Shown here piece by piece: positions 2,292 through 12,210 of a stretch of DNA of 12,491 nt. Below the pieces are notes generated by a model. The model was not told the origin of the DNA and did no database searches. It saw nothing but the letters and a program-made list of their open reading frames with translations. The translations under genes were made by a program, and so were the position numbers. The DNA is taken from NCBI GenBank assembly GCA_902799875.1, contig CADCCH010000048.1, positions 1 through 12,491 of the forward strand, written 5' to 3'. Each line of letters opens with the position of its first letter. Positions within the stretch are counted from its first letter, which is position 1. Source of the stretch: an uncultured Bacteroidales bacterium (GTDB lineage Bacteria; Bacteroidota; Bacteroidia; Bacteroidales; Paludibacteraceae).

Positions 2292-2301
2292 ATCTGATAG
2301 A

Positions 2302-2329
2302 AATTCAAAATTAAAAATTCAAAATTAAA
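2302..2329. repeat. Intergenic heptamer repeat (AATTCAA/AATTAAA), two 14-bp units
   Basis: The 14-bp sequence AATTCAAAATTAAA occurs twice in perfect tandem (2302-2315 and 2316-2329). Each unit is built from two related heptamers. The array fills most of the gap between the S9 peptidase and the permease and includes the peptidase stop codon (2325-2327). On the minus strand each unit contains TAATTTTG, which fits the Bacteroidetes -7 consensus TAnnTTTG and is identical to the -7 box at 5705-5712. Confidence 0.85.
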
Positions 2330-4403
2330 GACTGCGCGCGAGGAAGCGAAGGATACGCTCATGCATATGAGGCGCATTATTACCTTTGCGCAGATGATGG
2401 TTATCATCGGGATAGAGCTGCATCTCGAATTGCTTGTCCGCACGCACGAGTGCGTCTATATATTGCATCGTGTGCTGTACATGCACATTATCATCCGCCG
2501 TTCCGTGAATGATCAGCACGTTGCCTTTCAAATCCGCTGCTTTGTTGAGAAGCGAAGCCTCTTCGTAGCCCTTTGGGTTCACTTGCGGACGACGCATATA
2601 ACGCTCCGTATAAGCGCTGTCATACAGTTTCCAATCTGTCACAGGTGCGATAGCAATACCCGCTTTGAAAGGATGATTCTTCTGCGACATCGTATAGAGG
2701 GTTTGGTAACCGCCGTAACTCCAACCGAGGATTGCCATACGGTCACCGTCAATATCTTTCCTCCAACCGAGGATTGCCATACGGTCACCGTCAATATCTT
2801 TCCGTTTGGAGATGTACTTAGCCGCAGCAATCAGATCTTCCGCCTCTTTCTGACCAAGCGACATATAAGTCTCGTTTCTCCAAGCCCGACCACGGCAATC
2901 CGATCCTCGTGTATCCACGATAAGCACCGCATATCCGGCATCCGCCAAAGCATATTCGAAACGCTTACGCCAACGGTTGAGTACACGCTGACTCTGCGGA
3001 CCGCTGTAGTGCATGACGACTAAGGGGATTTGAGATTTGACATTTGACATTTGAGATTTGTCATTTGGAACCATCAGCATTGCCTCTAAGTCTTGTCCCT
3101 TGGCATTGGGGATCTTCATGAGTTGGGGTTCGGGCAGTTTATTGGCTTGCCAAGCTGCCTTGACCTCCGCATTGTCCTCTATAATGGACCATTTGTCCTT
3201 GGTGGACAAGATATATTCATTAGGGGTGTCGAACGACTGATGGCATAAGATAGAACTGTTGCAGTCCTTCGCAAAACGGGCAGACCAGATACCATCTTCT
3301 TTGGAAACTTGAGTAATGGTATTTTTCTTCAGGCTGAGTCCGTATATATGCCGTGTGGAAGGCGTCGGAGCGGCTTGATAGAAGAGGATTTGAGTCTTCT
3401 CGTTCACGCCGTACAATGCCGTTACGTCTATCTCATCCGGCGTCAAAGCACGCAGTTGGATACCGTCTTTTCCATATAAATACGCGCGTCTCCAGCCTTC
3501 CTGCTCACTGAGGACGATCACTCTTCCGTCGGTTAACCACTGCCACTGGTCGAAGAGGGAATAGTCCACGAAGTATTTCTTACTCTCCTCGTGATACCAG
3601 AGGTTCGAGACGGTCGATTTGGCATTGCAGGAAAGCACGTCCATCTTCGTCTGGTCGCGGTTCACGCGCAGAACAAACAAAGTGCTCTCGTTATACCATT
3701 TGAGACGCGGGAAATAGAAGTCCTTGTCGCTGGTCGTTGGTCGTTGGTCGTTGGTCACCTGCATCGTGAGGATCCCTTTGGTAGCCACATCATAGACGCA
3801 GACCGATGCCTTCGCATTCTGACAACCGGCTTTCGGATAGCGCAGGCTCTCCAAGGTCGGATATTGAGTATCAGCATACACTTCCCATGAGAAACTTGGC
3901 ACCTCAGTCTCGTTGAGCCGAACGAACGCCAACTGTTTAGAATCGGGACTCCAAGCAAAGAGGGCGGTTGTACCAAACTCCTCTTCGTACAACCAATCAG
4001 CCACACCGCTGATGATATCGGTGTTCTCCTCTTTGGAGACCGCCACCTCGGTACCGAAATCGAGCTTATGGATATAGAGGTTGTTATCCTTCGCAAACGC
4101 CACGTACCTTCCGTTAGGCGACATCACCGCGTCACGCACCTTGACTTCTGCTCCGAATATACCTTCGCCCAAACGCTTACGCGTATGACGCATGGTATCA
4201 TAAACGAACCAATCCGCCACTTCGGAATGACGAAAGATCTTCTGTTCATTCTCTTTCTCCAGACGGTAGCGACCTTTGGGAGTCAAGGAAGGATTATAGA
4301 CAGCCAAGATACTATCCTGCTCTGCTTCACTGAGCGTTTTGGCGTTATAGTCGCCGCTCAGTATTCCGGTTAAAACCGATAGTATAATTACCAATAATTT
4401 CAT
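2325..4403 (-). CDS. Dipeptidyl peptidase IV-type S9 serine peptidase with repeat insertions
   Basis: A 692-residue exported peptidase. It has a short N-terminal signal segment (MKLLVIILSVLTGILSG), a beta-propeller to about residue 440, and a C-terminal alpha/beta hydrolase. The DPP IV double-glutamate motif is visible as DWLYEEEF (136-143). The oxyanion tyrosine lies in YSGPQSQ (Tyr466), the nucleophile in GWSYGGY (Ser562), the aspartate in HGTADDNVH (Asp637) and the histidine in DDNHH (His669). The enzyme should release N-terminal Xaa-Pro or Xaa-Ala dipeptides in the periplasm. Three odd segments stand out: VTNDQRPTTSDKD (216-228) and NDKSQMSNVKSQI (447-459) come from heptamer repeats, and RKDIDGDRMAILGW is duplicated in tandem (534-547, 548-561) right before the catalytic serine. 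The reading frame stays open, but the duplicated strand could impair folding. It lies 17 bp downstream of the InlB-like gene and shares its promoter. Confidence 0.95.
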   Translation of the reverse strand: MKLLVIILSVLTGILSGDYNAKTLSEAEQDSILAVYNPSLTPKGRYRLEKENEQKIFRHSEVADWFVYDTMRHTRKRLGEGIFGAEVKVRDAVMSPNGRYVAFAKDNNLYIHKLDFGTEVAVSKEENTDIISGVADWLYEEEFGTTALFAWSPDSKQLAFVRLNETEVPSFSWEVYADTQYPTLESLRYPKAGCQNAKASVCVYDVATKGILTMQVTNDQRPTTSDKDFYFPRLKWYNESTLFVLRVNRDQTKMDVLSCNAKSTVSNLWYHEESKKYFVDYSLFDQWQWLTDGRVIVLSEQEGWRRAYLYGKDGIQLRALTPDEIDVTALYGVNEKTQILFYQAAPTPSTRHIYGLSLKKNTITQVSKEDGIWSARFAKDCNSSILCHQSFDTPNEYILSTKDKWSIIEDNAEVKAAWQANKLPEPQLMKIPNAKGQDLEAMLMVPNDKSQMSNVKSQIPLVVMHYSGPQSQRVLNRWRKRFEYALADAGYAVLIVDTRGSDCRGRAWRNETYMSLGQKEAEDLIAAAKYISKRKDIDGDRMAILGWRKDIDGDRMAILGWSYGGYQTLYTMSQKNHPFKAGIAIAPVTDWKLYDSAYTERYMRRPQVNPKGYEEASLLNKAADLKGNVLIIHGTADDNVHVQHTMQYIDALVRADKQFEMQLYPDDNHHLRKGNNAPHMHERILRFLARSL
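2719..2802. repeat. Perfect 42-bp tandem duplication inside the S9 peptidase gene
   Basis: Positions 2719-2760 and 2761-2802 are identical over all 42 bases. The duplication is exactly 14 codons, so the frame is kept. It repeats RKDIDGDRMAILGW, the strand and loop that lead into the nucleophile elbow GWSYGG. The first copy therefore ends in W-R and only the second reaches W-S-Y-G-G. Full identity points to a very recent event or to an assembly error. Confidence 0.97.
3028..3069. repeat. In-frame heptamer array, six ATTTGnn units
   Basis: Six consecutive heptamers read ATTTGAG, ATTTGAC, ATTTGAC, ATTTGAG, ATTTGTC, ATTTGGA. On the coding (minus) strand they give NDKSQMSNVKSQI, replacing the usual linker between the propeller and the hydrolase domain of the S9 peptidase. 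A related array of the same heptamer family occurs in the TPR-like gene at 11891-11918. Confidence 0.9.
3725..3759. repeat. In-frame heptamer array, GGTCGTT type
   Basis: Three perfect GGTCGTT heptamers (3732-3752) are flanked by a degenerate copy on each side (3725-3731 TGTCGCT and 3753-3759 GGTCACC). The coding strand reads VTNDQRPTTSDK, a hydrophilic insertion in the beta-propeller of the S9 peptidase. Confidence 0.88.
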
Positions 4404-4420
4404 ATGCTATTATCAACTAT

Positions 4421-5683
4421 TCAATCATTTATTTTCGTCCCCATAATCGTATAGGTCTCTCCGTTGAGGAGGATCAACACTTGTCCGTTACGGAGTATTT
4501 TTAGGGCTTTACCTTCAGAGGAAGGAATAAGATCCGTTCCCATGAGCCGCTCGGGATGACAACTGTACCGCAAAGCTTCGCGTCGGTGCGAAGGCAGCAA
4601 AGCCATCGGAGAAGTCATCGGGTTAGCTTGCAGCAAACCGGCATAGCAATTCTCTCCAGCTCCATCACAAATATTCAGCCAAAGGATGTAGTTCTTCGCG
4701 TCGATGACGGTATAGAACAAAGTCTCATCCCCTTGATGGTACACTAACCATGGACTCGGTTTTATCGCCATCTTGGTTCCCGCATAGCCTATCGGATTAC
4801 CTGTTTTGGTATGCGTGATATAGGCAGTGTCCGGCGAAGCAAACGATATCGTATAGTATTGATTTTCATCATGTACGTCCGTTATACTCCAAGACATTTT
4901 ACTTGTCTCTGAATCCGGAACACCATTGAGCGAGATATCAAAAGCTCTATTCACATACAGGTACTCTCCGTCCACCAGATCTGTCACATAGGCTCTATCC
5001 GGGGTATCATTATAGAAGAACACCGCCCACAGCGTGCAGTTCTCTTCGGGATAGAACATCTCATAAGCTTTGTACAAAGGCGGCATCTCGTCCAACTCAT
5101 CAAACTCTGTATCACTCCACCCCACGAACTGCCATCGGTCTTGATTCTCCATCCTCGGCAGAAGCACTCCCGATCCGCCTGTCTCTTCGCGCAAGGTGTC
5201 CATCGGGGTAGCACCGCTCATGAGCGTCACGGACTTCGCAGGCGAATCGCCGTACGTAACGACAAATTTCTCGATATGAAGCGAATTAGCGGTTCCGATC
5301 AGTTGGATTGTCAAACTATAGACATTCGCTACACTGCCGGAAACCAGCGTAATAGCGTGATAATTCTGACTATCATACGCGCCTGTCCAATCCTTGAATA
5401 TGCCGGATTTCTGCCCCACCGTATATCCGTTCGCGCGCACCTCAAAATTACCGGCTCCACCGCTGGCATTCGAGCGCACATATGCCACCACTTTCTCTAC
5501 CGCAATACCGCCCAACTCACGAAGCATCAATGCCGCTACGTCGTTTTTCCGCACATCGCCCTTCTGATAGGTGTTGCTATACTCCACCTCCATATTAGAA
5601 GGCGTAGCACCCTCTACAGACACCGTGGTTTTAGTCTGTATCGTAAAACTCATGACGGACAATAGTATAAGCAGTAGTTTCAT
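4421..5683 (-). CDS. Exported InlB-like repeat protein with T9SS-style C-terminal tail
   Basis: I chose the ATG at 5683, giving 420 residues that begin with a signal-like MKLLLILLSVMSFTIQ. The frame stays open upstream to 5956, but that part crosses the predicted promoter (5705-5736) and encodes low-quality sequence. Residues 20-145 form a beta-rich domain of unknown type. Residues 150-222 resemble an InlB/Listeria-Bacteroides repeat, including WQFVGWSDTEFDELDE and a closing CTLWAVFF. The C-terminus (391-418, with KILRNGQVLILLNG and TYTIMGTKI) resembles tails seen on many secreted Bacteroidales proteins and thought to act as type IX secretion sorting signals; that is my recollection of the pattern, not a search result. 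It is the first gene of the operon with the peptidase, permease and kinase. It is probably a surface or secreted protein of unknown function, possibly adhesive. Confidence 0.8.
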   Translation of the reverse strand: MKLLLILLSVMSFTIQTKTTVSVEGATPSNMEVEYSNTYQKGDVRKNDVAALMLRELGGIAVEKVVAYVRSNASGGAGNFEVRANGYTVGQKSGIFKDWTGAYDSQNYHAITLVSGSVANVYSLTIQLIGTANSLHIEKFVVTYGDSPAKSVTLMSGATPMDTLREETGGSGVLLPRMENQDRWQFVGWSDTEFDELDEMPPLYKAYEMFYPEENCTLWAVFFYNDTPDRAYVTDLVDGEYLYVNRAFDISLNGVPDSETSKMSWSITDVHDENQYYTISFASPDTAYITHTKTGNPIGYAGTKMAIKPSPWLVYHQGDETLFYTVIDAKNYILWLNICDGAGENCYAGLLQANPMTSPMALLPSHRREALRYSCHPERLMGTDLIPSSEGKALKILRNGQVLILLNGETYTIMGTKIND

Positions 5684-5704
5684 GTATTCACACAATTTAG
5701 CGTG

Positions 5705-5736
5705 CAAAATTACAAAAAATAATTGACATACGCAAG
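5705..5736 (-). promoter_or_regulatory. Bacteroidetes-type promoter for the 5683-to-56 operon
   Basis: On the minus strand, CTTG (5736-5733) is followed by 20 bp and TAATTTTG (5712-5705), matching the -33 TTTG / -7 TAnnTTTG pattern with one mismatch. Transcription would begin near 5698, giving a leader of roughly 15 nt before the ATG at 5683. A possible plus-strand promoter overlaps it (ATTG 5722-5725, 19 bp, TATTTTTG 5745-5752). The rest of the divergent 5684-5972 region is AT-rich and holds no convincing gene. Confidence 0.6.
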
Positions 5737-5886
5737 CAAATTCGTATTTTTGTAAAAAAAAGACCTTTTTGAGCTGTTTGTGGAATGCATGAGTGAGAGC
5801 AAGAAAAATATCGAAAAAGTCCAAAATACTGCTCGCAGTGAGCTGGAAACGTGCTTTTTTGAGAAATTTATGCACTTTTTCGCATT

Positions 5887-5910
5887 TTTTCTTGCATATA
5901 TGCAAAAAAA
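5887..5910. promoter_or_regulatory. Palindrome overlapping the symporter promoter (candidate operator)
   Basis: TTGCATATATGCAA (5892-5905) is a perfect 14-bp palindrome. It extends to 24 bp with a single mismatch because a T-tract on the left faces an A-tract on the right. It overlaps the -33 box and half of the spacer of the promoter at 5891-5922, a position where a bound dimeric regulator would block RNA polymerase. Confidence 0.4.
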
Positions 5911-5922
5911 GCAGTACCTTTG
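5891..5922 (+). promoter_or_regulatory. Bacteroidetes-type promoter for the symporter-porin operon
   Basis: CTTG (5891-5894), 20 bp, then TACCTTTG (5915-5922), with transcription expected near 5929 and a leader of about 43 nt before the ATG at 5973. The stretch AAAAAAAGCAGTACCTTTGC (5904-5923) is repeated exactly, on the other strand, in the tRNA-Gln promoter. Confidence 0.7.
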
Positions 5923-5972
5923 CGCGCTTTTTTGGTTTTTGATAACAAATAATCATTCAAGATATAGAAATT

Positions 5973-7376
5973 ATGAAAAATGTAAATGTTAAAAAACATG
6001 TGTTGCTGCCGTTGACCATTCTGGCTGTACTGTTCTTGTGGTTTGCACCGGCATCAATGTTTCACATGGAAGGTTTGACAGTCGTTCAGCAACGTACGAT
6101 AGCTATCTTCTGCTATGCGGCACTCATGTGGATGTTTGAGATCATCCCTGCTTGGGCTACGTCTGTGAGCACGATTGTTTTTCTGTTGCTCTCGGTTTCC
6201 AACAAAGGATTTACGAATCCGGAAATGGGCGATTTGGTTAATTTTAAAGAGCTGATGGCTTCTTTTGCAGACCCGATTATTATGCTCTTCTTGGGCGGTT
6301 TCGTGTTGGCTATCGCAGCGAGCAAAGTGGGTTTGGATGTCTATTTGGCGCATATTCTGCTGAAGCCGTTCGGTACCAAGCCCAGCAATGTGTTGCTCGG
6401 ATTCTTAGTGCTCATCAGCGTGATGTCGATGTTCATGTCCAATACAGCTACGGCTGCGATGATGTTAGCGTTCTTGACTCCGGTATTGAAAACGCTGCCT
6501 GCAGAAGGAGGCGGAAGGGTGAGTCTCGCGCTTTCTATTCCTATTGCAGCCAACATAGGCGGTTTGGGTACTCCTATCGGCACGCCTCCTAACGCTATCG
6601 CTATCGGTCAGTTGGCTTCCAGCGGTATTGAAATAGGTTTTGGCGCATGGATGCTGCGTTTCGTGCCGGTGGTAGCGATTATGATTCTTTTCGCTTGGTG
6701 GTTGCTGCAGGCACTTTTCCCCTTCAAGACCAAATGTATCAATATCGTCATCGACGGTACGTGCAAGAAAGATTGGAGATTCTGGATGGTGACCATCACT
6801 TTCCTCGGTACGATCTTACTGTGGATGACCGGAGAGCTGACGCACCTGAACTCCAACGTGGTAGCGCTTATTCCGTTTGCTATCTTCGCACTCTTCGGTA
6901 TTTTCACCCGCGATGATTTTGCCAAGATCGATTGGCATGTGCTCTGGATGGTGGCCGGTGGATTTGCGTTGGGAACTGCGCTGAACAAGACCGGTTTGGC
7001 AGCAGGTTTGGTACAAGCTATTCCGTTCGGCACTTGGTCGGCTTTGGCTGTACTGATCATCGCAGGTCTGTTAGGCTGGTTGCTCAGTAACTTCATTGCC
7101 AACTCGTCGGCAGCGAACTTGTTAGTGCCGATCCTCGCAGTTGTGGGTACCGCGATGGCGGAGAACCTCGCACCGATGGGCGGCGTGACCACGCTGTTGG
7201 TTTGCGTAGCGGCTTCTACCTCGTTCGCAATGCTCTTCCCTATTTCTACCCCGCCGAATGCGATCGCTTCTTCTACCGGAATGATCAAGACGCACGATAT
7301 GACCGTTGTGGGTCTGATCGTTGGTGTACTCGGTATCGTCGTTTCGTACGGAGTGATGTTGTTGTTCCCGTTCTAA
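5973..7376 (+). CDS. SLC13/DASS divalent anion:Na+ symporter
   Basis: A 467-residue polytopic membrane protein with the inverted-repeat layout of the DASS family. The first-half hairpin motif is SNTATA (SNT at 156-158), followed by GTPIGTPPNAIA (199-210). The second half carries ANSSAANLL (NSS at 377-379) and PISTPPNAIAS (423-433). In characterised relatives such as the Vibrio succinate transporter, two SNT-type motifs hold the carboxylate substrate and the TPP regions help bind sodium. Succinate, fumarate, malate or a related dicarboxylate is therefore likely, though sulfate cannot be ruled out. The second motif reads N-S-S instead of S-N-T, which may alter specificity. The protein would sit in the inner membrane. 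It is the first gene after its own promoter, with a porin-like gene 12 bp downstream, so both are probably expressed together. The ATG at 5973 gives MKNVNVKKHVLLPL, a typical cytoplasmic N-terminus. Confidence 0.93.
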   Translation: MKNVNVKKHVLLPLTILAVLFLWFAPASMFHMEGLTVVQQRTIAIFCYAALMWMFEIIPAWATSVSTIVFLLLSVSNKGFTNPEMGDLVNFKELMASFADPIIMLFLGGFVLAIAASKVGLDVYLAHILLKPFGTKPSNVLLGFLVLISVMSMFMSNTATAAMMLAFLTPVLKTLPAEGGGRVSLALSIPIAANIGGLGTPIGTPPNAIAIGQLASSGIEIGFGAWMLRFVPVVAIMILFAWWLLQALFPFKTKCINIVIDGTCKKDWRFWMVTITFLGTILLWMTGELTHLNSNVVALIPFAIFALFGIFTRDDFAKIDWHVLWMVAGGFALGTALNKTGLAAGLVQAIPFGTWSALAVLIIAGLLGWLLSNFIANSSAANLLVPILAVVGTAMAENLAPMGGVTTLLVCVAASTSFAMLFPISTPPNAIASSTGMIKTHDMTVVGLIVGVLGIVVSYGVMLLFPF

Positions 7377-7388
7377 CAAAGAGTAAGA

Positions 7389-8807
7389 ATGCATATGAAA
7401 AAGATAGTAATGATAGTGCTCTCAGCTTTGATTCTGATGCCGATGATGGCTCAGGAGGTTAGCAAAGAGAGCAAGAAAGAAGCGGTAAAAAGCCACCTCA
7501 AGCAGCATTTCAAGCCGTACGGATTTATCCGCAACTATTTCGCGTTTGACTCGCGGGAATCGATGTCCGGAACGGGTGATTTGTATAACTATCAGCCCAA
7601 AGATGAGAACTGGAACAAAACCGACGATCCGGAATTACGTCAGGATCTGAATGCTATCTCCACGTTCCGTTTTCTCACTCTCACGACTCGTGTGGGTCTG
7701 AATATCGTGGGTTATAAATGGCGCAACACGGAGTTTGGCGCTAAGATCGAAGCGGATTTCTATGCCGGTTTGAGTACCAAAGGCACGGGTTCACACTCCG
7801 TTTCAGGAACTGCACAGCTTCGTCTTCGTCAGGCATATCTGACCTTAGCTTGGGATAGCCTGCGTATGAATAATAAGGATTACGCGCGCGTAGAGCTGTT
7901 GATGGGTCAGGCTTGGCATCCTATGGCAGCCGATTTATGCGACGCTATCGCGCTTAACTCCGGTGCTCCGTTTGGTCCTTTCTCGCGTACGCCGCAAGTG
8001 AAGATGGATGCCCGTTTGGGTAATCTGTTCACGTTGACGGGTGCTTTGATTTGGCAGATGCAATACTGCTCCATCGGTCCGGACGGACAATCGGCGGAGT
8101 ATATCGGTTATAGCAAGACGCCGGAGGCTTATTTAGGTCTGACTTTCCACCATAAAGGCTGGTTAGTACGTGCCGGAGCGGATGTGCTGAGTATCAAGCC
8201 GCGTCATATAGGAAAAGTAATACCAACGCCCGGAGATACAGTTGCAGTAAAAGTTTCCGACCGCCTTACGACCGTTTCCCCGTTCGTGTATTTGCAGTAT
8301 AAGAAAGGCGAGTTCTCCATCAAAGCGAAGTCCATCTTTGCCGAGTCCGGAGAGCATATGAATATGAACGGCGGTTATGGAGTGAGCGACGTGAAGAGTG
8401 ACGGTTCTTGGGCATATACCCCGACACGCACATCTTCGTCTTGGATCAGTATAGTGTATGGCGGCAAAGTCGGAGCGCAGGAAGACAAACATCCGCAGAA
8501 GTTACAGGGAATTCTTTTTGCCGGTTACGTTCGTAATTTCGGTACCAAGGAAGAGCTTGCGACCAAAGCGAACGGTTCGCTTGTCGGTTACTTCTATCCG
8601 CGAGCTGCGAATATGTACCGGATGTTCCGTGTGACGCCGACTCTGCTGTACACCATCGGCAAGTTCCAGATCGGCTGCGAGTACGAAGTGACTTCCGTTC
8701 ATTACGGCGATGCAAGCAAAGGTCTCAATGCCCATGGTTTGGCAGACAAAGGTCTCCATTGGGTCACGAACCACCGCGTCCAGCTCATGACGAAATACAA
8801 CTTCTAA
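7389..8807 (+). CDS. Outer-membrane porin-like beta-barrel protein
   Basis: A 472-residue protein with a clear signal peptide (MKKIVMIVLSALILMPMMA, cleavage before QEVS). Either ATG 7389 or ATG 7395 could be the start, and the second gives the more usual MKK opening. After cleavage comes a short charged, Lys-rich segment and then KPYGFIRNYFAFDSRES, a beta-strand opening reminiscent of porin-like proteins in Bacteroidales. The remainder alternates polar and aromatic residues, and the final residue is phenylalanine (KYNF), the usual last-strand signal for outer-membrane barrel assembly. Size suits a barrel of roughly 16-18 strands. It lies 12 bp after the symporter gene and ends in a terminator, so it probably provides outer-membrane passage for the symporter's substrate. 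That role is inferred from operon structure only; I do not recognise a characterised homologue. Confidence 0.8.
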   Translation: MHMKKIVMIVLSALILMPMMAQEVSKESKKEAVKSHLKQHFKPYGFIRNYFAFDSRESMSGTGDLYNYQPKDENWNKTDDPELRQDLNAISTFRFLTLTTRVGLNIVGYKWRNTEFGAKIEADFYAGLSTKGTGSHSVSGTAQLRLRQAYLTLAWDSLRMNNKDYARVELLMGQAWHPMAADLCDAIALNSGAPFGPFSRTPQVKMDARLGNLFTLTGALIWQMQYCSIGPDGQSAEYIGYSKTPEAYLGLTFHHKGWLVRAGADVLSIKPRHIGKVIPTPGDTVAVKVSDRLTTVSPFVYLQYKKGEFSIKAKSIFAESGEHMNMNGGYGVSDVKSDGSWAYTPTRTSSSWISIVYGGKVGAQEDKHPQKLQGILFAGYVRNFGTKEELATKANGSLVGYFYPRAANMYRMFRVTPTLLYTIGKFQIGCEYEVTSVHYGDASKGLNAHGLADKGLHWVTNHRVQLMTKYNF

Positions 8808-8836
8808 CAAGCGCCCCAAGTGGGCGTTTGTTTTTT
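8806..8836 (+). terminator. Intrinsic terminator after the porin-like gene
   Basis: An 11-bp stem with one G-U pair (8806-8816 with 8822-8832) closes a five-base loop (CAAGT) and runs into a T-tract. It overlaps the last two bases of the stop codon (8805-8807), so the transcript ends immediately after the coding sequence. Confidence 0.85.
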
Positions 8837-8926
8837 GTAAATATGGGGTGTTTTAAACCCAAAATAATAAAAACTTACCTCAAAATCATAAAAAAAGCAA
8901 TTTTTATGCATTTTTTTATCGAAATA

Positions 8927-8958
8927 TTTGGTAGTATCAGCAAAAATGACTATTTTTG
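8927..8958 (+). promoter_or_regulatory. Bacteroidetes-type promoter for the 9037-11264 operon
   Basis: TTTG (8927-8930), 20 bp, then TATTTTTG (8951-8958): both boxes match the consensus. Transcription should start near 8965, leaving a leader of about 70 nt before the ATG at 9037. That leader contains a tiny ORF (8971-9006) encoding MKRRMPKSRSK. The 8837-8926 stretch is A/T-rich with no gene. Confidence 0.75.
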
Positions 8959-9036
8959 TGCGCAATTTCAATGAAACGGAGAATGCCGAAAAGCCGATCA
9001 AAGTGAGTAGGCCAGACAAACTAACTCTATTACTCT

Positions 9037-9801
9037 ATGAGAAAAACATCTCTACTTCTTGTTGCGCTGATGAGTGTTAGCGTAGCATTTGCTCAGATTT
9101 CTACAGGTGAGCCTAACTCGTCTGTAATTCCGCGTACAGGTAACCGTCCGCAAGCTGGTGATTTCGGAATGTACCTCGGTGTATCCGTAACCCAGATCAT
9201 GGACTTGGTTGAGTTGAACAAAGATGAACCCTTCAAGAACAACATCTTCTGGGCGCTTCCTATGATCAACCTCAAGTATTACTTCACGGACAAATGGGAG
9301 GGCCGTCTTGGTTTCCAGTTTGCATGTAAGAATGAGAACAGCCGTCTCAAAGACGACAATCTCGATTACAGCCACGTAAGAGACATCAACTACACCCGTT
9401 TCCTGCCGGGCTGCGCCTATCACTTCAATCCTATTAACGTGCTGGATGTATATTTAGGAGCACAGATGCCTATCGGATTTAATATCGACTCTGAAAAAAC
9501 GAAAAACGGTACCTTGACTACCAAAACGACCAACAACAAGTTCGTCATCGGTGGTGGTATCTTCCTCGGTTTGCAGTTCTTTGTTGCAGATCTTCCGTTC
9601 GCTATCGGTTTTGAGGGCGGTTACTCCGGTCAAGCAAGCTTCAGCGCAGGACAGAAAACAACGATTAACAACGACGGTAACAAGCAGACCAGCGTTACTA
9701 TTGACGGTAGAACAGCTACTGACCCCTCCAAAGCCAGCCATATAGAAGCTACTTGGGGCGCTGATGCAGCTATCACGTTCACCTATTATTTCCGCAAGTA
9801 A
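9037..9801 (+). CDS. Small outer-membrane beta-barrel protein
   Basis: This 254-residue protein begins with a textbook signal peptide (MRKTSLLLVALMSVSVAFA, cleaved before QISTG). The mature chain alternates hydrophobic and polar residues in strand-length blocks, with glycine-aromatic patches such as FGMYLGVSV, KYYFTDKWEGRLGF, DVYLGAQMPIGF and FVIGGGIFLGLQFFV. It finishes with AAITFTYYFRK, where the terminal strand is followed by a two-residue tail. This is the pattern of 8- to 10-strand outer-membrane barrels (OmpW/OmpX-like or generic outer-membrane beta-barrel families). A Thr/Asn-rich loop near residues 150-165 and a second near 210-235 are probably surface loops. It is the first gene of a three-gene operon with two lipoproteins, suggesting a joint envelope function. 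I cannot assign a specific role. Confidence 0.85.
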   Translation: MRKTSLLLVALMSVSVAFAQISTGEPNSSVIPRTGNRPQAGDFGMYLGVSVTQIMDLVELNKDEPFKNNIFWALPMINLKYYFTDKWEGRLGFQFACKNENSRLKDDNLDYSHVRDINYTRFLPGCAYHFNPINVLDVYLGAQMPIGFNIDSEKTKNGTLTTKTTNNKFVIGGGIFLGLQFFVADLPFAIGFEGGYSGQASFSAGQKTTINNDGNKQTSVTIDGRTATDPSKASHIEATWGADAAITFTYYFRK

Positions 9802-9824
9802 TTAACGTCTAATTTTTATCGATT

Positions 9825-10451
9825 ATGAAACAACGCATATTACTACCTGTACTGCTTTTGATAGCAGTGATAGGCACTTCGTGCGTCAGCCAGCATAATG
9901 TAGAGAGAAACTACTCCGACCTCAGACCGGATGTAGTTCGTCTGGAATTGACGATGGACGACTACCAATATATGGGTGACGTGAATATCGAGGTGGAATA
10001 CAAGACATACTTAGGAATCTTCTCGAAGATTCTGACGGTCAACGGAGAGAAGTATGACCCGCGTTTCTACCATAAAACGAATATCGCTTTCCGCAAGAAA
10101 GTGAAACTGGGCAAACTGAAATTGGCATTGCACAAAGTGTTAGAGCTGTATCCCAATGCTGATTACATCATCCCCGCTTCTTTCAACGACCAAGTGGAGC
10201 ATATGATGGGAGGTCGTATTCACAAACGTACTATGACCCTCAAAGTATATGCTATCAACAAGGTTTCGGCAACTCAAGCAGAACAAAAGCACCAAGCCGA
10301 GGTTCAGGCATTGGACAACAAGAATGCAGCACTTAACCAACAGGTTGAAGCGTTGCAGGCAGAGTTGAATGCGACTAAAGAGGCTCTGGAGAAAGCTGAG
10401 TTGGAAGCACGTATCAACGAGCAAAAGAACAATAAAAACCGCCGTCGTTAA
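9825..10451 (+). CDS. Lipoprotein with C-terminal coiled coil
   Basis: A 208-residue protein with a lipoprotein signal sequence: hydrophobic residues 5-17 followed by GTSC, giving a lipidated Cys20. Residues 35-145 form a compact alpha/beta-looking domain, including LTMDDYQYMGDVNIEVEY and a helix-strand segment ending LELYPNADYIIPASF. This resembles a recurring lipoprotein family in Bacteroides, a match I recall but cannot verify here. Residues 150-200 are a strongly predicted coiled coil rich in Ala, Glu, Gln and Leu (for example QQVEALQAELNATKEALEKA). The chain ends in a basic NKNRRR. The coiled coil could drive oligomerisation or reach toward a partner in the periplasm. It sits 23 bp after the beta-barrel gene and 6 bp before the next lipoprotein gene, so the three are almost certainly co-transcribed. 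Function unknown. Confidence 0.85.
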   Translation: MKQRILLPVLLLIAVIGTSCVSQHNVERNYSDLRPDVVRLELTMDDYQYMGDVNIEVEYKTYLGIFSKILTVNGEKYDPRFYHKTNIAFRKKVKLGKLKLALHKVLELYPNADYIIPASFNDQVEHMMGGRIHKRTMTLKVYAINKVSATQAEQKHQAEVQALDNKNAALNQQVEALQAELNATKEALEKAELEARINEQKNNKNRRR

Positions 10452-10457
10452 TAACGC

Positions 10458-11264
10458 ATGAGAAAAACTCTTTTGATTCTATTGTCAGCGCTTAGTCTGA
10501 TCGCCTGCAATAAACAGTCCGAATTGGTGACTATTATGCGCATTGATAATGTGGATTGGCAGAAGGCACCTGTTGCATCAGGTGCCGTTCTGCACGTCAC
10601 AGTCCTTGCAGAAGCAAAGTCTTCTCCTATACAGCGTATCGTCATCTCATCCGAGGACGTTGAATATAAAAACAAAGACGTCTTAGACAGTACGCTTGCT
10701 TGGCCGTTAAAAAACGTCAACATGAGTTGGTATTACGCTCTGCCGTACTATCAGGACACCACCAAGGTTGTTCTCACAGCACGGTCATTTGACGGGTCAG
10801 GAAACATGATGTCCTACTCTATCACAATGCTGGTGGCACCCGGAGAAGAGAAACTGCGTACATTGGATAATATGACTTTGTATTCCGCAGCTTCCGTGGG
10901 CAAATCCGCGTTCTCGTTAGAGACCTTACAACCGGTATATTTGAACAAGGATTCAGCTACCGTCGCATTCTATGATGTCTTGGATAAGACGTTACAAGCG
11001 CCTTCCTGCATATGGCATTCCGAGTCCGGACTGCTGTTCTCTCGCACCGAAGGGTTTAACTTCTCCGAAGCAAGCGTTCAGAGTCTGGAGAATGTATGGC
11101 CTAATCTGATGAAGACATCCACCATCAAAGATCTGAAAGCGGACGATGTGCTGCTGATCGGTAAAGGGGACAAGGCGATAGGTGCCATAAAGATCCTGCA
11201 AATCATTGACGAACAAGGAACAGACATGGACCGCTATATTTTCTCCCTCAAGATTCGCCCATAA
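10458..11264 (+). CDS. Putative lipoprotein of unknown function
   Basis: A 268-residue protein with a clear lipobox, LIAC at residues 14-17, so Cys17 is the expected lipidation site. The mature chain looks mainly beta-stranded. The first half (residues 20-130) may be an Ig-like or fibronectin-like fold, judged from spaced strands such as GAVLHVTVLAEAK, QRIVISSEDVEY and TTKVVLTARSFDGSGNMMSY. A second half from about 140 carries ATVAFYDVLDKT and DVLLIGKGDKAIGAIKIL, which might be another small beta domain. I recognise no catalytic motif. It is the last gene of the barrel-lipoprotein-lipoprotein operon, 6 bp after the coiled-coil lipoprotein, and is followed 19 bp later by a perfect terminator hairpin. 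The start ATG at 10458 is fixed by the signal sequence. Confidence 0.82.
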   Translation: MRKTLLILLSALSLIACNKQSELVTIMRIDNVDWQKAPVASGAVLHVTVLAEAKSSPIQRIVISSEDVEYKNKDVLDSTLAWPLKNVNMSWYYALPYYQDTTKVVLTARSFDGSGNMMSYSITMLVAPGEEKLRTLDNMTLYSAASVGKSAFSLETLQPVYLNKDSATVAFYDVLDKTLQAPSCIWHSESGLLFSRTEGFNFSEASVQSLENVWPNLMKTSTIKDLKADDVLLIGKGDKAIGAIKILQIIDEQGTDMDRYIFSLKIRP

Positions 11265-11283
11265 CACTCTCCAATATCCACAT

Positions 11284-11313
11284 AAAAAGCCAAGCGTGAA
11301 TGCTTGGCTTTTT
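11284..11313 (+). terminator. Intrinsic terminator, works in either direction
   Basis: A perfect 12-bp stem (11284-11295 with 11302-11313) encloses a six-base loop GTGAAT, with an A-tract on one side and a T-tract on the other. It ends the 9037-11264 operon and could also stop leftward transcription that passes the tRNA. Confidence 0.93.
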
Positions 11314-11346
11314 ATGTTGCACCTCTGGGTGAAAGCCGGTTCGCAA

Positions 11347-11373
11347 AAAAAGTCCCCCAAAGGAGGACTTTTT
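11347..11373 (-). terminator. Intrinsic terminator of the tRNA-Gln transcript
   Basis: The stem 11347-11358 with 11362-11373 has a three-base loop and a run of seven T on the minus strand. The one imperfect pair is G-U when read from the minus strand but C-A from the plus strand, which favours a leftward terminator. It begins 3 bases beyond the tRNA 3' end. Confidence 0.85.
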
Positions 11374-11376
11374 ATG

Positions 11377-11447
11377 TTGCCGAACCAGGACTCGAACCCA
11401 GACAGACAGAACCAGAATCTGTAGTGCTACCATTACACAATTCGGCA
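11377..11447 (-). tRNA. tRNA-Gln (anticodon CUG)
   Basis: The 71-nt sequence folds as a cloverleaf. The acceptor stem pairs TGCCGAA with TTCGGCA, with A as discriminator base. The D stem is GTG/CAC, and the anticodon stem ACAGA/TCTGT surrounds loop TTCTGGT, placing CUG at positions 34-36. The variable region has four bases and the T loop is TTCGAGT. CCA is not encoded and must be added after transcription. It reads only CAG glutamine codons by strict pairing, so a second tRNA-Gln (UUG) is expected elsewhere. It has its own promoter and terminator. Confidence 0.95.
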
Positions 11448-11509
11448 AAATTTAATGAACAATGTATCACTTATGAAACACAATTCACATCGTTTTTCAA
11501 AAGCGGGTG

Positions 11510-11541
11510 CAAAGGTACTGCTTTTTTTTGATATAAGCAAA
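11510..11541 (-). promoter_or_regulatory. Bacteroidetes-type promoter for tRNA-Gln
   Basis: On the minus strand, TTTG (11541-11538), 20 bp, then TACCTTTG (11517-11510) match both boxes. Transcription should start near 11503, about 56 nt upstream of the mature tRNA. It shares a 20-base core exactly with the symporter promoter. The A/T-rich stretch just upstream (11542-11568) could act as an UP-like element. Confidence 0.8.
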
Positions 11542-11568
11542 TATTTTTGCAAAAAAATGCAAAAAAAA

Positions 11569-12210
11569 TCACTTTTTTAGTTTTTTATGGCATTGTTGGA
11601 CGTACATATGCGTTGCTTCACGTATCCAGCAGTACTTCCATTCGGGTTTTCGGAAGTGCTTCTCAGCACGCTCAAACCACGCTAAAGCATCCTTTTTGCT
11701 GCCAAAGGGTTTGGGGGCATAAAAGAGGCAAGTACCATAGTAAGAGAGAACCAACGGATCGTTGGGCGCCAGTTTGGTGGCATCCTTTGCCAGAGACATC
11801 GCCTTAATGGGATGAATAGACTCATGCAAACGGAGTTCAAACACATAGACCGCAGAGAGGTACATCTCGTAGTGCCCTTTGGGCAGTTGGGATTTGAGAT
11901 GTGAGATGTGCGATTTGAACTGCTGGACGTAGCGTTTGGCTTCCGGCAGGAGAGCTTCTTTGCCTTCTTTCTTTGCTTCCGCTACGATATATCCGCAGTA
12001 ACCGTATTCGTACACCAGATCCTTTGTACCTTGTACTTTGTCCCCTTGTACCTTATCTATATATGTTTTCCAAACGCTCATGTCTTCCCGTTGGTAAGCA
12101 TCGAATAATTCCCTGTCCGCAGAGAAGTCTTGTGCGGACAGGGAAATACTCATTGCCATAAGGAGAAACAAAACGCTCCTTTGTACGTTGTACATTGTCC
12201 CTTTGTACAT
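11569..12210 (-). CDS. Exported TPR-like protein with heptamer-derived segments
   Basis: A 213-residue protein, helical, with a signal peptide (cleavage likely after LSLSA-type residue 26, before QDFS). Residues 135-187 resemble one or two tetratricopeptide repeats: AMSLAKDATKLAPNDPLVLS followed by FGSKKDALAWFERAEKHF. It is probably periplasmic and may act in protein-protein contacts; no catalytic motif is visible. Two internal segments come from heptamer arrays: IDKVQGDKVQGTKDL (51-65) and FKSHISHLKSQL (98-109). A third array forms the N-terminus, MYKGTMYNVQRS. The start may be ATG 12210, 5 nt after the pfp stop, or the ATG at 12195. Both give the same signal peptide, and AAAGGG just before 12195 could serve as a ribosome site. 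It probably shares a transcript with pfp. No strong terminator separates it from the tRNA promoter. Function unknown. Confidence 0.8.
   Translation of the reverse strand: MYKGTMYNVQRSVLFLLMAMSISLSAQDFSADRELFDAYQREDMSVWKTYIDKVQGDKVQGTKDLVYEYGYCGYIVAEAKKEGKEALLPEAKRYVQQFKSHISHLKSQLPKGHYEMYLSAVYVFELRLHESIHPIKAMSLAKDATKLAPNDPLVLSYYGTCLFYAPKPFGSKKDALAWFERAEKHFRKPEWKYCWIREATHMYVQQCHKKLKK
11891..11918. repeat. In-frame heptamer array, GATTTGA/GATGTGA type
   Basis: Four consecutive heptamers read GATTTGA, GATGTGA, GATGTGC and GATTTGA, the same family as the array at 3028-3069. The coding strand gives FKSHISHLKSQ in the TPR-like protein. Confidence 0.8.
12022..12057. repeat. In-frame heptamer array, CTTTGTA/CCTTGTA type
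   Basis: Heptamers CTTTGTA, CCTTGTA, CTTTGTC, then one extra base, then CCTTGTA and CCTTATC. The extra base turns the coding into a five-residue repeat (DKVQG DKVQG) in the TPR-like protein. A matching array sits at 12181-12209. Confidence 0.78.
12181..12209. repeat. Heptamer array covering the TPR-like gene start
   Basis: Units TTGTACG, TTGTACA, TTGTCCC, one extra base, then TTGTACA. On the minus strand these encode YKGTMYNVQ and supply the internal ATG at 12195; the array also abuts the ATG at 12210. It has the same one-base slip as the array at 12022-12057. Confidence 0.8.

What the first reader, a model, noticed from the sequence alone, without database searches (positions are those of the whole stretch)
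2302..12209. A dispersed set of heptanucleotide repeat islands in four sequence families
Six short arrays share a 7-bp period but differ in sequence: 2302-2329, 3028-3069, 3725-3759, 11891-11918, 12022-12057 and 12181-12209. Two families occur twice, in unrelated genes. A common period with several unrelated units suggests one generating process rather than chance low complexity. The format recalls the short tandem heptamer (STRR) sequences known from cyanobacteria. I know of no named equivalent in Bacteroidales, but I could not search.
Basis: partly seen in the sequence, partly recalled or inferred. Interest (0 to 1): 0.72.

Follow-up and report, generated by a model that had tools for sequence, protein, structure and literature searches.

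The report
Fast-changing seven-base repeat islands
Close relatives of this gut bacterium carry many short seven-base repeat arrays in gaps between genes and in loops of proteins; sister genomes often hold different repeats at the same spot, and some arrays form the mirrored arms of a small element that appears to move.

Summary
The six heptamer islands are real, though two are weak. No genome is held for the window, so I used 80 related loci found through its S9 peptidase; two (RUG454 = G001, RUG715 = G002) match it at about 94-98% in DNA. Samples of G002 and G001 hold 115 and 72 period-7 arrays in 400 and 330 kb; one resample of each holds none. Families are genome-specific: AACGACN triplets number 93 in G002, 9 in G001, 0 in two other relatives. 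At 15 of 72 orthologous sites the sisters carry different or only distantly related heptamers. One array core recurs at unlinked places with mostly unrelated flanks (six matches in G001, nine in G002). An 84-bp element, E1 (29 copies compared), is bounded by inverted ACAATnn heptamer arms, with a near-clean empty site in the sister. I read the islands as fast-turnover heptamer repeats that grow locally and are also copied between sites, a multi-family, partly mobile variant of known bacterial heptanucleotide repeats. No reverse transcriptase was found in either sister. The copying machinery is unknown, and E1 accounts for under a tenth of arrays.

The parts
2301..2329 (.). Heptamer array AAATTMA (14-bp dimer AAATTCAAAATTAA), in the gap between the MFS transporter gene and the 3' end of the S9 peptidase gene
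   Evidence: TRF; same array in L001 and L002; L003, loosely anchored, has an AATTTTN-type array near the site
3028..3067 (-). Heptamer array ATTTGAN, in frame in the S9 peptidase gene (peptide ..NDKSQMSNVKSQI..)
   Evidence: TRF; L001 same length, L002 21 bp shorter; L003 and L006, loosely anchored on one side, show other heptamers
3726..3756 (-). Heptamer array GTCGTTG (coding strand CCAACGA), in frame in the peptidase gene (peptide ..TNDQRPTTSDK..)
   Evidence: TRF; the loop carries a period-7 array in 6 of 47 extracted orthologues, 5 families
11891..11918 (-). Heptamer array GATGTGA/ATTTGAG, in frame in the 213-aa gene of unknown family
   Evidence: TRF; identical in L001 and L002; no Pfam match for the gene
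12022..12057 (-). Weak array TTGTACC (GTACAAN, close to the unit family of the E1 arms), in the same 213-aa gene
   Evidence: TRF, 76% matches and 8% indels; present in L001 and L002
12181..12210 (-). Weak array TTGTACA, same family, at the start of the 213-aa gene
   Evidence: TRF, 70% matches and 8% indels; L001 and L002 carry a further copy beside it
2325..4403 (-). Host gene of two arrays: S9 dipeptidyl peptidase IV-type protein, 692 aa
   Evidence: PF00930 E 5.4e-75 and PF00326 E 1.5e-58
11569..12210 (-). Host gene of three arrays: 213-aa protein of unknown family
   Evidence: ORF; 0 Pfam families

Best explanation
The islands are members of a genome-wide set of dispersed heptanucleotide arrays in a gut lineage of Bacteroidales (Paludibacteraceae by its relatives' labels). 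Two steps are well supported by the sequences. First, arrays change length and unit composition locally, at some sites in 7-bp steps, which fits replication slippage. Second, some array pieces, with their non-repetitive cores, sit at unlinked sites with mostly unrelated flanks, so array DNA has been copied or inserted between sites. Inferred: copying goes through short homologies between arrays (template switching or patch conversion) for core-less arrays, and through a transposition-like route for E1, an 84-bp core whose mirrored heptamer arms serve as repeated end motifs. Sites that tolerate insertion (gene junctions, protein loops) keep an array while its family is replaced as one family spreads in a lineage. 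The arrays in this window are most likely neutral or mildly selfish rather than regulatory.
For: Abundance: 115 (G002, 400 kb) and 72 (G001, 330 kb) period-7 arrays, 0 and 0 in resamples; 66 of 80 relatives' loci hold at least one. Genome-specific families: AACGACN triplets 9, 93, 0, 0 in four genomes, controls 0; TCAAATN triplets in 6 of 101 family genomes, 64 hits in G001 and at most 10 elsewhere, while the reversed control, itself a heptamer pattern, has 168 hits in G017 and 99 in G043. Local change: of 40 same-family orthologous sites 22 have equal length, 7 differ by a multiple of 7, 11 differ otherwise. Replacement: 11 different and 4 related at 2 mismatches, of 72 sites; in other pairs L019/L028 is classed different, and L014/L054 (GTGATTG against ATTTTTG) and L022/L059 related at 2 mismatches. 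Spread: AACGACY arrays of G002 face another heptamer in G001 at 7 of 16 sites, other families at 3 of 40, Fisher p 0.0035 (family chosen, uncorrected). Copying: a 17-mer core inside AACGAC arrays, 6 matches in G001, 9 in G002, 1 in a third genome, 0 in 17 others, controls 0; flanks by eye mostly unrelated. E1: 29 copies, mirrored arms on both sides in all but one; 20 matches in G002, 3 in G001; near-clean empty site in G001 opposite G002 C45 89810.
Against: E1 accounts for under a tenth of arrays: 15 copies beside 342 arrays. Array surroundings do not share non-periodic 14-mers more than other intergenic windows do: 33 against 72 pairs in G001, 95 against 99 in G002; the control windows' top shared words look like promoter sequence. 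No target-site duplication was established and no transposase was looked for beyond Y1. Some swaps fit purely local change: at G002_C39 45889 both sisters share first and last units and differ inside. Of 17 'none' sites several are contracted or degenerate arrays. The flanks of the core-bearing arrays are not all unrelated: G001 C30 twice, G002 C14 three times in tandem, one orthologous pair, and a short likeness upstream in G001 C80 and G002 C36. Only two near-identical genomes were compared deeply, both metagenome assemblies, and several of their contigs were chosen because they held an array.
Confidence: 0.6

Rival explanations
1. Purely local slippage: each array is born from a chance near-duplicate and expands in 7-bp steps because of a polymerase property; no movement between sites.
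For: Heptanucleotides are the most abundant long simple repeats in most genomes and a polymerase footprint was proposed (PMC4679880 and PMC4692102 passages, citing Mrazek 2007, not read). Unit-length changes at 7 of 40 same-family sites and 21 bp in the peptidase array.
Against: Unit families are shared across unlinked sites of one genome and nearly absent from relatives; a 17-mer core recurs in arrays with mostly unrelated flanks; conserved E1 cores with arrays at both ends.
Confidence: 0.2
2. Binding-site arrays kept by selection: the heptamers are sites for a regulator or nucleoid protein, with the fixed positions as contacts and the variable positions as spacer.
For: Variation is position-specific: TCAAATC-like units in G002 (units within 2 mismatches of the seed) deviate at 0.44, 0.24 and 0.21 at three positions and 0.01-0.10 at the other four. 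Regulatory binding was proposed for TAACTGA repeats (PMC4679880, abstract and passages).
Against: Arrays sit at gene junctions and inside coding sequence alike: 56 of 115 and 35 of 72 in heuristic ORFs. Families differ at the same site between sisters at 15 of 72 sites, unexpected for a fixed regulator.
Confidence: 0.1
3. Arrays are written by a templated enzyme: a reverse transcriptase of telomerase or retron type, or a REP-type Y1 transposase moving single-stranded units.
For: Degenerate positions within a fixed unit recall stuttering templated synthesis (inference).
Against: PF00078: 0 matches in G001 and G002, 3 of 8 genomes positive. PF01797: 0 in G002; in G001 one partial match over 57 of 121 positions at the cut-off (22.6 bits, 23.9 with its neighbours; cut-off 23).
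Confidence: 0.04
4. Assembly or binning artefact of metagenome genomes.
For: The genomes compared deeply are metagenome assemblies.
Against: The window, L001 and L002 show the arrays at the same places; the swapped sites lie between the same flanks in both sisters and the arrays there are short.
Confidence: 0.03

Closest known systems
Heptanucleotide simple sequence repeats: TAACTGA of Beggiatoaceae, cyanobacteria and some Bacteroidetes (PMC4679880); cyanobacterial STRR (recalled)
   Same: Period 7, short tandem arrays, mostly intergenic, sporadic across taxa; in two Bacteroidetes the intergenic regions hold other heptamers too, and relatives with the same neighbours lack obvious repeats there.
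   Different: [quoted passage not shown] here dozens of families share a genome, families differ at orthologous sites and an array core recurs between sites.
GGGAATC heptamers of Xanthomonas and GGGGA(C/T)T of Nostoc (PMC4692102, passages)
   Same: Dispersed heptamer arrays, positions 1-4 and 6 conserved and the others variable; the majority between the same genes in two species, with length and sequence variation.
   Different: One G-rich family with a proposed quadruplex structure; ours are many and mostly not G-rich.
BrickBuilt MITE of Porphyromonas gingivalis (PMC4596501, abstract and outline)
   Same: A dispersed intergenic Bacteroidales element that joins a tandem repeat with small inverted-repeat ends.
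   Different: 23-bp repeat inside the element; E1 has 7-bp repeats as mirrored arms around a non-repetitive core.
Foldback and Galileo elements of Drosophila (PMC3573991, search listing only)
   Same: Internally repetitive terminal inverted repeats.
   Different: Eukaryotic elements with long arms; Galileo has a P-type transposase, none was identified for E1.
Tandem repeats of archaeal Borgs (PMC9879509, passages)
   Same: Rapidly evolving tandem repeats in intergenic regions and in reading frames.
   Different: The authors infer local origin with repeats unique to each locus, and units in ORFs are divisible by three. Here units are shared between loci and the period is 7 also in genes.

Membership tests
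Heptanucleotide simple sequence repeats (STRR-like, LSSR) | Tandem period-7 arrays in excess of chance | tested here: met
   58 against 0; 115 and 72 against 0 and 0
Heptanucleotide simple sequence repeats (STRR-like, LSSR) | Intergenic enrichment | tested here: met
   59 of 115 and 37 of 72 arrays outside heuristic ORFs that cover 90-91% of the samples
Heptanucleotide simple sequence repeats (STRR-like, LSSR) | Copy-number variation by whole units | tested here: met
   7 of 40 same-family orthologous sites differ by a multiple of 7 bp; 22 equal, 11 other
Cyanobacterial STRR sensu stricto | The published cyanobacterial unit sequences | not tested
   Unit sequences only recalled; no call made
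MITE or Foldback-like element (for E1) | Terminal inverted repeats around a conserved core, multiple copies | tested here: met
   29 copies, mirrored ACAATnn arms, confirmed without unit filtering on 28; 20 matches in G002
MITE or Foldback-like element (for E1) | Insertion polymorphism with an empty site | tested here: met
   G002 C45 89810 filled, G001 lacks it. Of 15 copies, 5 places could be located: 1 shared, 1 empty, 2 with other sequence in G001, 1 rearranged; 9 gave no orthologous site and 1 was outside the joined contigs
MITE or Foldback-like element (for E1) | Target-site duplication | tested here: inconclusive
   TTGTTA borders both sides at the one empty site but also occurs in the arm repeat
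MITE or Foldback-like element (for E1) | A partner transposase with the same ends | not tested
   No search for an autonomous partner was made
Reverse-transcriptase-written repeats (retron, telomerase-like) | A reverse transcriptase in the genome | tested here: not met
   PF00078 absent from G001 and G002 at E 0.001
REP elements with Y1 transposase | Y1 transposase | tested here: inconclusive
   PF01797: 0 in G002, one partial match at the cut-off in G001
Phase-variable contingency loci | On/off switching of a gene by copy-number change | not testable with these tools
   Needs population reads

The most novel reading that the evidence does not exclude
Heptamer arrays are repeated end-recognition motifs of a class of small mobile elements with mirrored, internally repetitive ends (a bacterial analogue of Foldback elements). 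Fixed unit positions are contacts for an unidentified recombinase, solo arrays are element ends or remnants, and each lineage's array spectrum records which element family has been spreading. Two inverted array pairs of other families in other genomes (L067 8220, AAATGTT/TTAACAT, 108 bp apart; L210 134, TAGTTTA/AAACTAT, 81 bp apart) hint that E1 is not the only one.
Probability: 0.2. Interest if true: 0.85.

Novelty: new variant of a known kind. Interest (0 to 1): 0.66.

Why it matters
Heptamer repeats have been noted in several bacterial groups without an accepted account of how they arise or spread. Here sister genomes differ in array family at the same gene junction, an array core recurs at unlinked sites, and one family is tied to a dispersed element with a polymorphic insertion. 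That turns a descriptive oddity into a testable mobility question and shows a source of rapid change in intergenic spacers and protein loops of gut Bacteroidales.

Tried and rejected
Ordinary conserved protein sequence: rejected, 41 of 47 extracted orthologous loops lack the array (33 of 80 loci gave no loop with my search expression). Hairpin constraint on E1 arms: one filled copy folds better than shuffles (z -5.7), but facing variable positions agree less than shuffled ones (0.372 against 0.465), so complementarity beyond the shared motif is not maintained. Arm conservation was inflated because units had to match ACAAT at 4 of 5 positions; the unfiltered recount is the one to use. Reverse transcriptase: not found in the sisters. 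Y1 transposase: none in G002, one partial match in G001. A systematic test for shared non-periodic words beside arrays was negative. Broad spread of the AACGAC core: 5 of 295 order genomes match with up to 2 mismatches, only G001 with 0 or 1. E1-like pattern in viral contigs: 0. Rfam on L118 16000-17400, which holds one E1 copy: only a tRNA above its gathering score. A shared unit mask TNTNAAN fits 177 of 342 arrays against 22% of shuffled units, but the mask was chosen after seeing the data. Literature: eight library searches listed no description of multi-family heptamer arrays in Bacteroidales; most subscription papers are not held. No tRNA scan was made and Rfam was not run on the window.
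Full report
What is in the window. Tandem Repeats Finder gives a period-7 row at all six reported places. Four are clear; 12022-12057 and 12181-12210 are weak, with 8% indels. 2301-2329 is a perfect 14-bp dimer. The arrays belong to four families, two of them seen twice. Two islands lie in an S9 dipeptidyl peptidase IV-type gene (PF00930, PF00326), one just beyond its 3' end, and three in a 213-aa gene without a Pfam match. A 42-bp tandem duplication at 2719-2803 lies in the same peptidase gene.

Relatives. No whole genome is held for the window. A scan with the peptidase kept 80 loci, the best 80 of 295, labelled Bacteroidales, Bacteroidia or Paludibacteraceae; where a title names a host it is mostly a ruminant. 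L001 (RUG454, genome G001) and L002 (RUG715, genome G002) align to the window at about 94-98% in their long blocks, and to each other at 95.1% over 18,984 aligned bases. I call them the sisters; the window's own placement in Paludibacteraceae is inferred from these labels.

More than chance. In the window plus 80 loci (1,454,525 bases) exact period-7 runs number 58 against 0 in one second-order Markov resample. Other periods also exceed the resample: 19 for period 8, 18 for 11, 23 for 14 and 14 for 15. With a tolerant detector, 400,000 bases of G002 hold 115 period-7 arrays and 329,762 bases of G001 hold 72, with 0 and 0 in resamples. These stretches are not random, since several contigs were chosen because they held an AACGAC match. 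Of the 80 loci, 66 hold at least one array (counted). Twenty genomes drawn from the phylum (297,226 bases) hold 4, three of them in one genome, and seven drawn from the family (109,355 bases) hold 0, while two other family genomes picked for their pattern counts hold 17 in 62,753 and 4 in 24,127 bases. The phenomenon is strong in this lineage and patchy elsewhere.

Where they sit. With a crude ORF caller, 59 of 115 and 37 of 72 arrays fall outside ORFs that cover 90-91% of the samples, about five times the expectation. ORFs can run through arrays in the stop-free orientation, so the coding share is an upper estimate.

Families are genome-specific. AACGACN triplets number 93 in G002, 9 in G001 and 0 in G003 and G004, controls 0 (overlapping triplets of one array count separately). 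TCAAATN triplets occur in 6 of 101 genomes of the family, 64 in G001 and at most 10 elsewhere; the reversed control is itself a heptamer pattern and scored 168 in G017, 99 in G043, 22 in G091 and 20 in G024. In 118 phylum genomes 6 match, G001 with 64 and the rest with one or two. Within single loci two arrays share a family in 16 of 296 pairs, between loci in 199 of 16,175.

Variation is position-specific. Among units within 2 mismatches of a seed, the TCAAATC family of G002 deviates at 0.44, 0.24 and 0.21 at three positions and 0.01-0.10 at the other four; GACTAAC deviates at 0.47, 0.15 and 0.15 against 0.00-0.03; other families are less sharp. The same kind of pattern, positions 1-4 and 6 conserved, is reported for GGGAATC in Xanthomonas (PMC4692102, passages).

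Change at orthologous sites. I mapped arrays between the sisters by their flanks, 66 of 183 from G002 and the rest from G001, and kept 72 distinct sites after dropping 38 duplicates, 13 with loose flanks and 2 with overlapping flanks. Same family: 22 of equal length, 7 differing by a multiple of 7 bp, 11 differing otherwise. Related at 2 mismatches: 4. Different heptamer family: 11. No array by the detector in the other genome: 17, several of them contracted or degenerate arrays. An example is GGATCAAT-(GGACAAA)n-TTAAAAAT in G001 against GGATCAAT-CA(GTCGTTG)n-TTAAAAAT in G002, with imperfect units. AACGACY arrays of G002 face another heptamer at 7 of 16 sites, other families at 3 of 40 (Fisher p 0.0035; the family was chosen, no correction made). 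In 13 other pairs of loci, counted in both directions, 18 sites were the same, 8 none, 3 related at 2 mismatches, 1 different and 25 unmapped. Two of the three 'related' rows are one site seen from both sides, where L014 carries GTGATTG and L054 ATTTTTG arrays; the different one is L028 CCAACGA against L019 CCCCTAA. In the peptidase loop of 3726-3756, 6 of 47 extracted orthologues carry a period-7 array, in five families.

Copying between sites. Inside AACGAC arrays a non-repetitive core recurs. The 17-mer CGACAGCCCTTGCATGG has 6 matches in G001, 9 in G002 (three in one tandem), 1 in G236 and 0 in 17 other genomes, controls 0 in all 20. By eye the flanks beyond the arrays are mostly unrelated; exceptions are two neighbouring copies in G001 C30, three in tandem in G002 C14, one orthologous pair (G001 C80, G002 C63), and a short likeness upstream in G001 C80 and G002 C36. 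With two mismatches allowed, 4 of 294 other order genomes have one match each, at 2 mismatches, controls 0. This is hard to reconcile with slippage alone. Against a general rule, array surroundings do not share non-periodic 14-mers more often than other intergenic windows, where the most shared control words look like promoter sequence.

E1. An 84-bp core (ACAAAGGGCT ... GTACGGACT ... TTTGTACAAAACC ... GGACGCTTTGT) was found in 15 distinct copies in the sequence fetched by then, and in 18 genomes searched whole at E 0.001 or better with 20 matches in G002, 7 in G225, 3 in G001, 2 in G231, 2 in G234, 1 in G224 and none in 12; the more diverged copy shared by both sisters is not among the listed ones, so these are lower bounds. 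Of 29 distinct copies with both ends recognised, all have one to six ACAATnn units on the left and all but one have one to five mirrored units on the right (a unit had to match ACAAT at 4 of 5 positions and arms were read to 42 bases). Without that filter, the three heptamers next to the core on either side of 28 copies agree with ACAATT at 0.87-0.92, 0.74-0.81, 0.98-0.99, 0.98-1.00, 0.87-0.92 and 0.70-0.81, and only the seventh position is freely variable (0.43-0.48). Facing units do not covary at positions 6-7 (0.372 against 0.465 shuffled), so a selected hairpin stem is not supported although one copy folds well as DNA. Of 15 copies, 5 orthologous places could be located: one shared, one near-clean empty site in G001 (opposite G002 C45 89810), two where G001 has other, apparently repetitive, sequence, and one rearranged. 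E1 therefore looks like a small inverted-repeat element whose ends are heptamer arrays. It explains few arrays: 15 copies beside 342 arrays. In one search, neighbouring arrays within 260 bp were related in direct orientation 22 times, inverted 11 times, ambiguous once and unrelated 30 times; by eye six of the inverted pairs are E1 copies and three more have its unit family.

Mechanism. Shown: excess, genome-specific families, change of length in units at some sites, different families at orthologous sites, a core shared between unlinked arrays, an element with mirrored heptamer arms and a polymorphic insertion. Inferred: slippage as the local step, short-homology copying for core-less arrays, a transposition-like step for E1. 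No reverse transcriptase in either sister (PF00078) and no full Y1 transposase (PF01797) disfavour templated or REP-type writing, within the limits of incomplete assemblies.

Known and new. The kind is known: heptanucleotide repeats in cyanobacteria, Beggiatoaceae, Xanthomonas and a few Bacteroidetes (PMC4679880 abstract, passages and section 12; PMC4692102 passages). In Xanthomonas most repeats lie between the same genes in two species, with length and sequence variation. Borg tandem repeats are thought by their authors to arise locally (PMC9879509, passages). BrickBuilt (PMC4596501, abstract and outline) joins a 23-bp tandem repeat with inverted-repeat ends in Porphyromonas. New here, as far as my eight library searches go, are many families in one genome, different families at orthologous sites, a shared array core at unlinked sites, and mirrored heptamer arms. 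I file it as a new variant of a known kind.

Noticed in passing
window 2719-2803: A perfect 42-bp tandem duplication inside the S9 peptidase gene; both copies map to one 42-bp stretch in L001 (BLAST blocks), so it is absent there, or an assembly slip here.
   Followed up: partly
L118 16236-16316 and 16370-16440; L008 near 20600; 24 distinct matches over the fetched loci: A second small dispersed element, AATAATCGT - variable, apparently stem-loop, stretch - (G/C)TAAGA, found inside heptamer arrays of different families in different genomes (TCAAATN, TCTGAAN, TTTCAAC) and, in L118, near a tRNA gene.
   Followed up: partly
G001_C33 near 47416 and the G001 place opposite G002_C50 23230: Sequence of the type CTCCCTTTAAGGGAAAGG or CCCTTCCCTAAAAGGAAGGG occupies places where the sister has a heptamer array or E1; it looks like a further dispersed repeat, not counted.
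   Followed up: no
L006, L012, L022, L059: Period-8 stretches (GAGTGAAA/GAATGAAA) occur in several relatives in similar places; periods 8 and 11 are also over-represented.
   Followed up: no
L271-L279: Nine viral-contig stretches contain an exact four-unit AACGACN array; whether these are phage or host DNA was not examined.
   Followed up: no
window 5864-5934 and 11500-11570: Stretches with TGCAAAAAAAGCAGTACCTTTGC or its complement, resembling the Bacteroidetes TAnnTTTG promoter (recalled); similar stretches seem to recur widely in the sisters.
   Followed up: no
L067 8220-8400 and L210 134-300: Inverted heptamer array pairs of families other than that of E1, 108 and 81 bp apart, in other genomes; among 26 neighbouring pairs, 8 were inverted, 5 direct, 12 unrelated and 1 ambiguous.
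   Followed up: no
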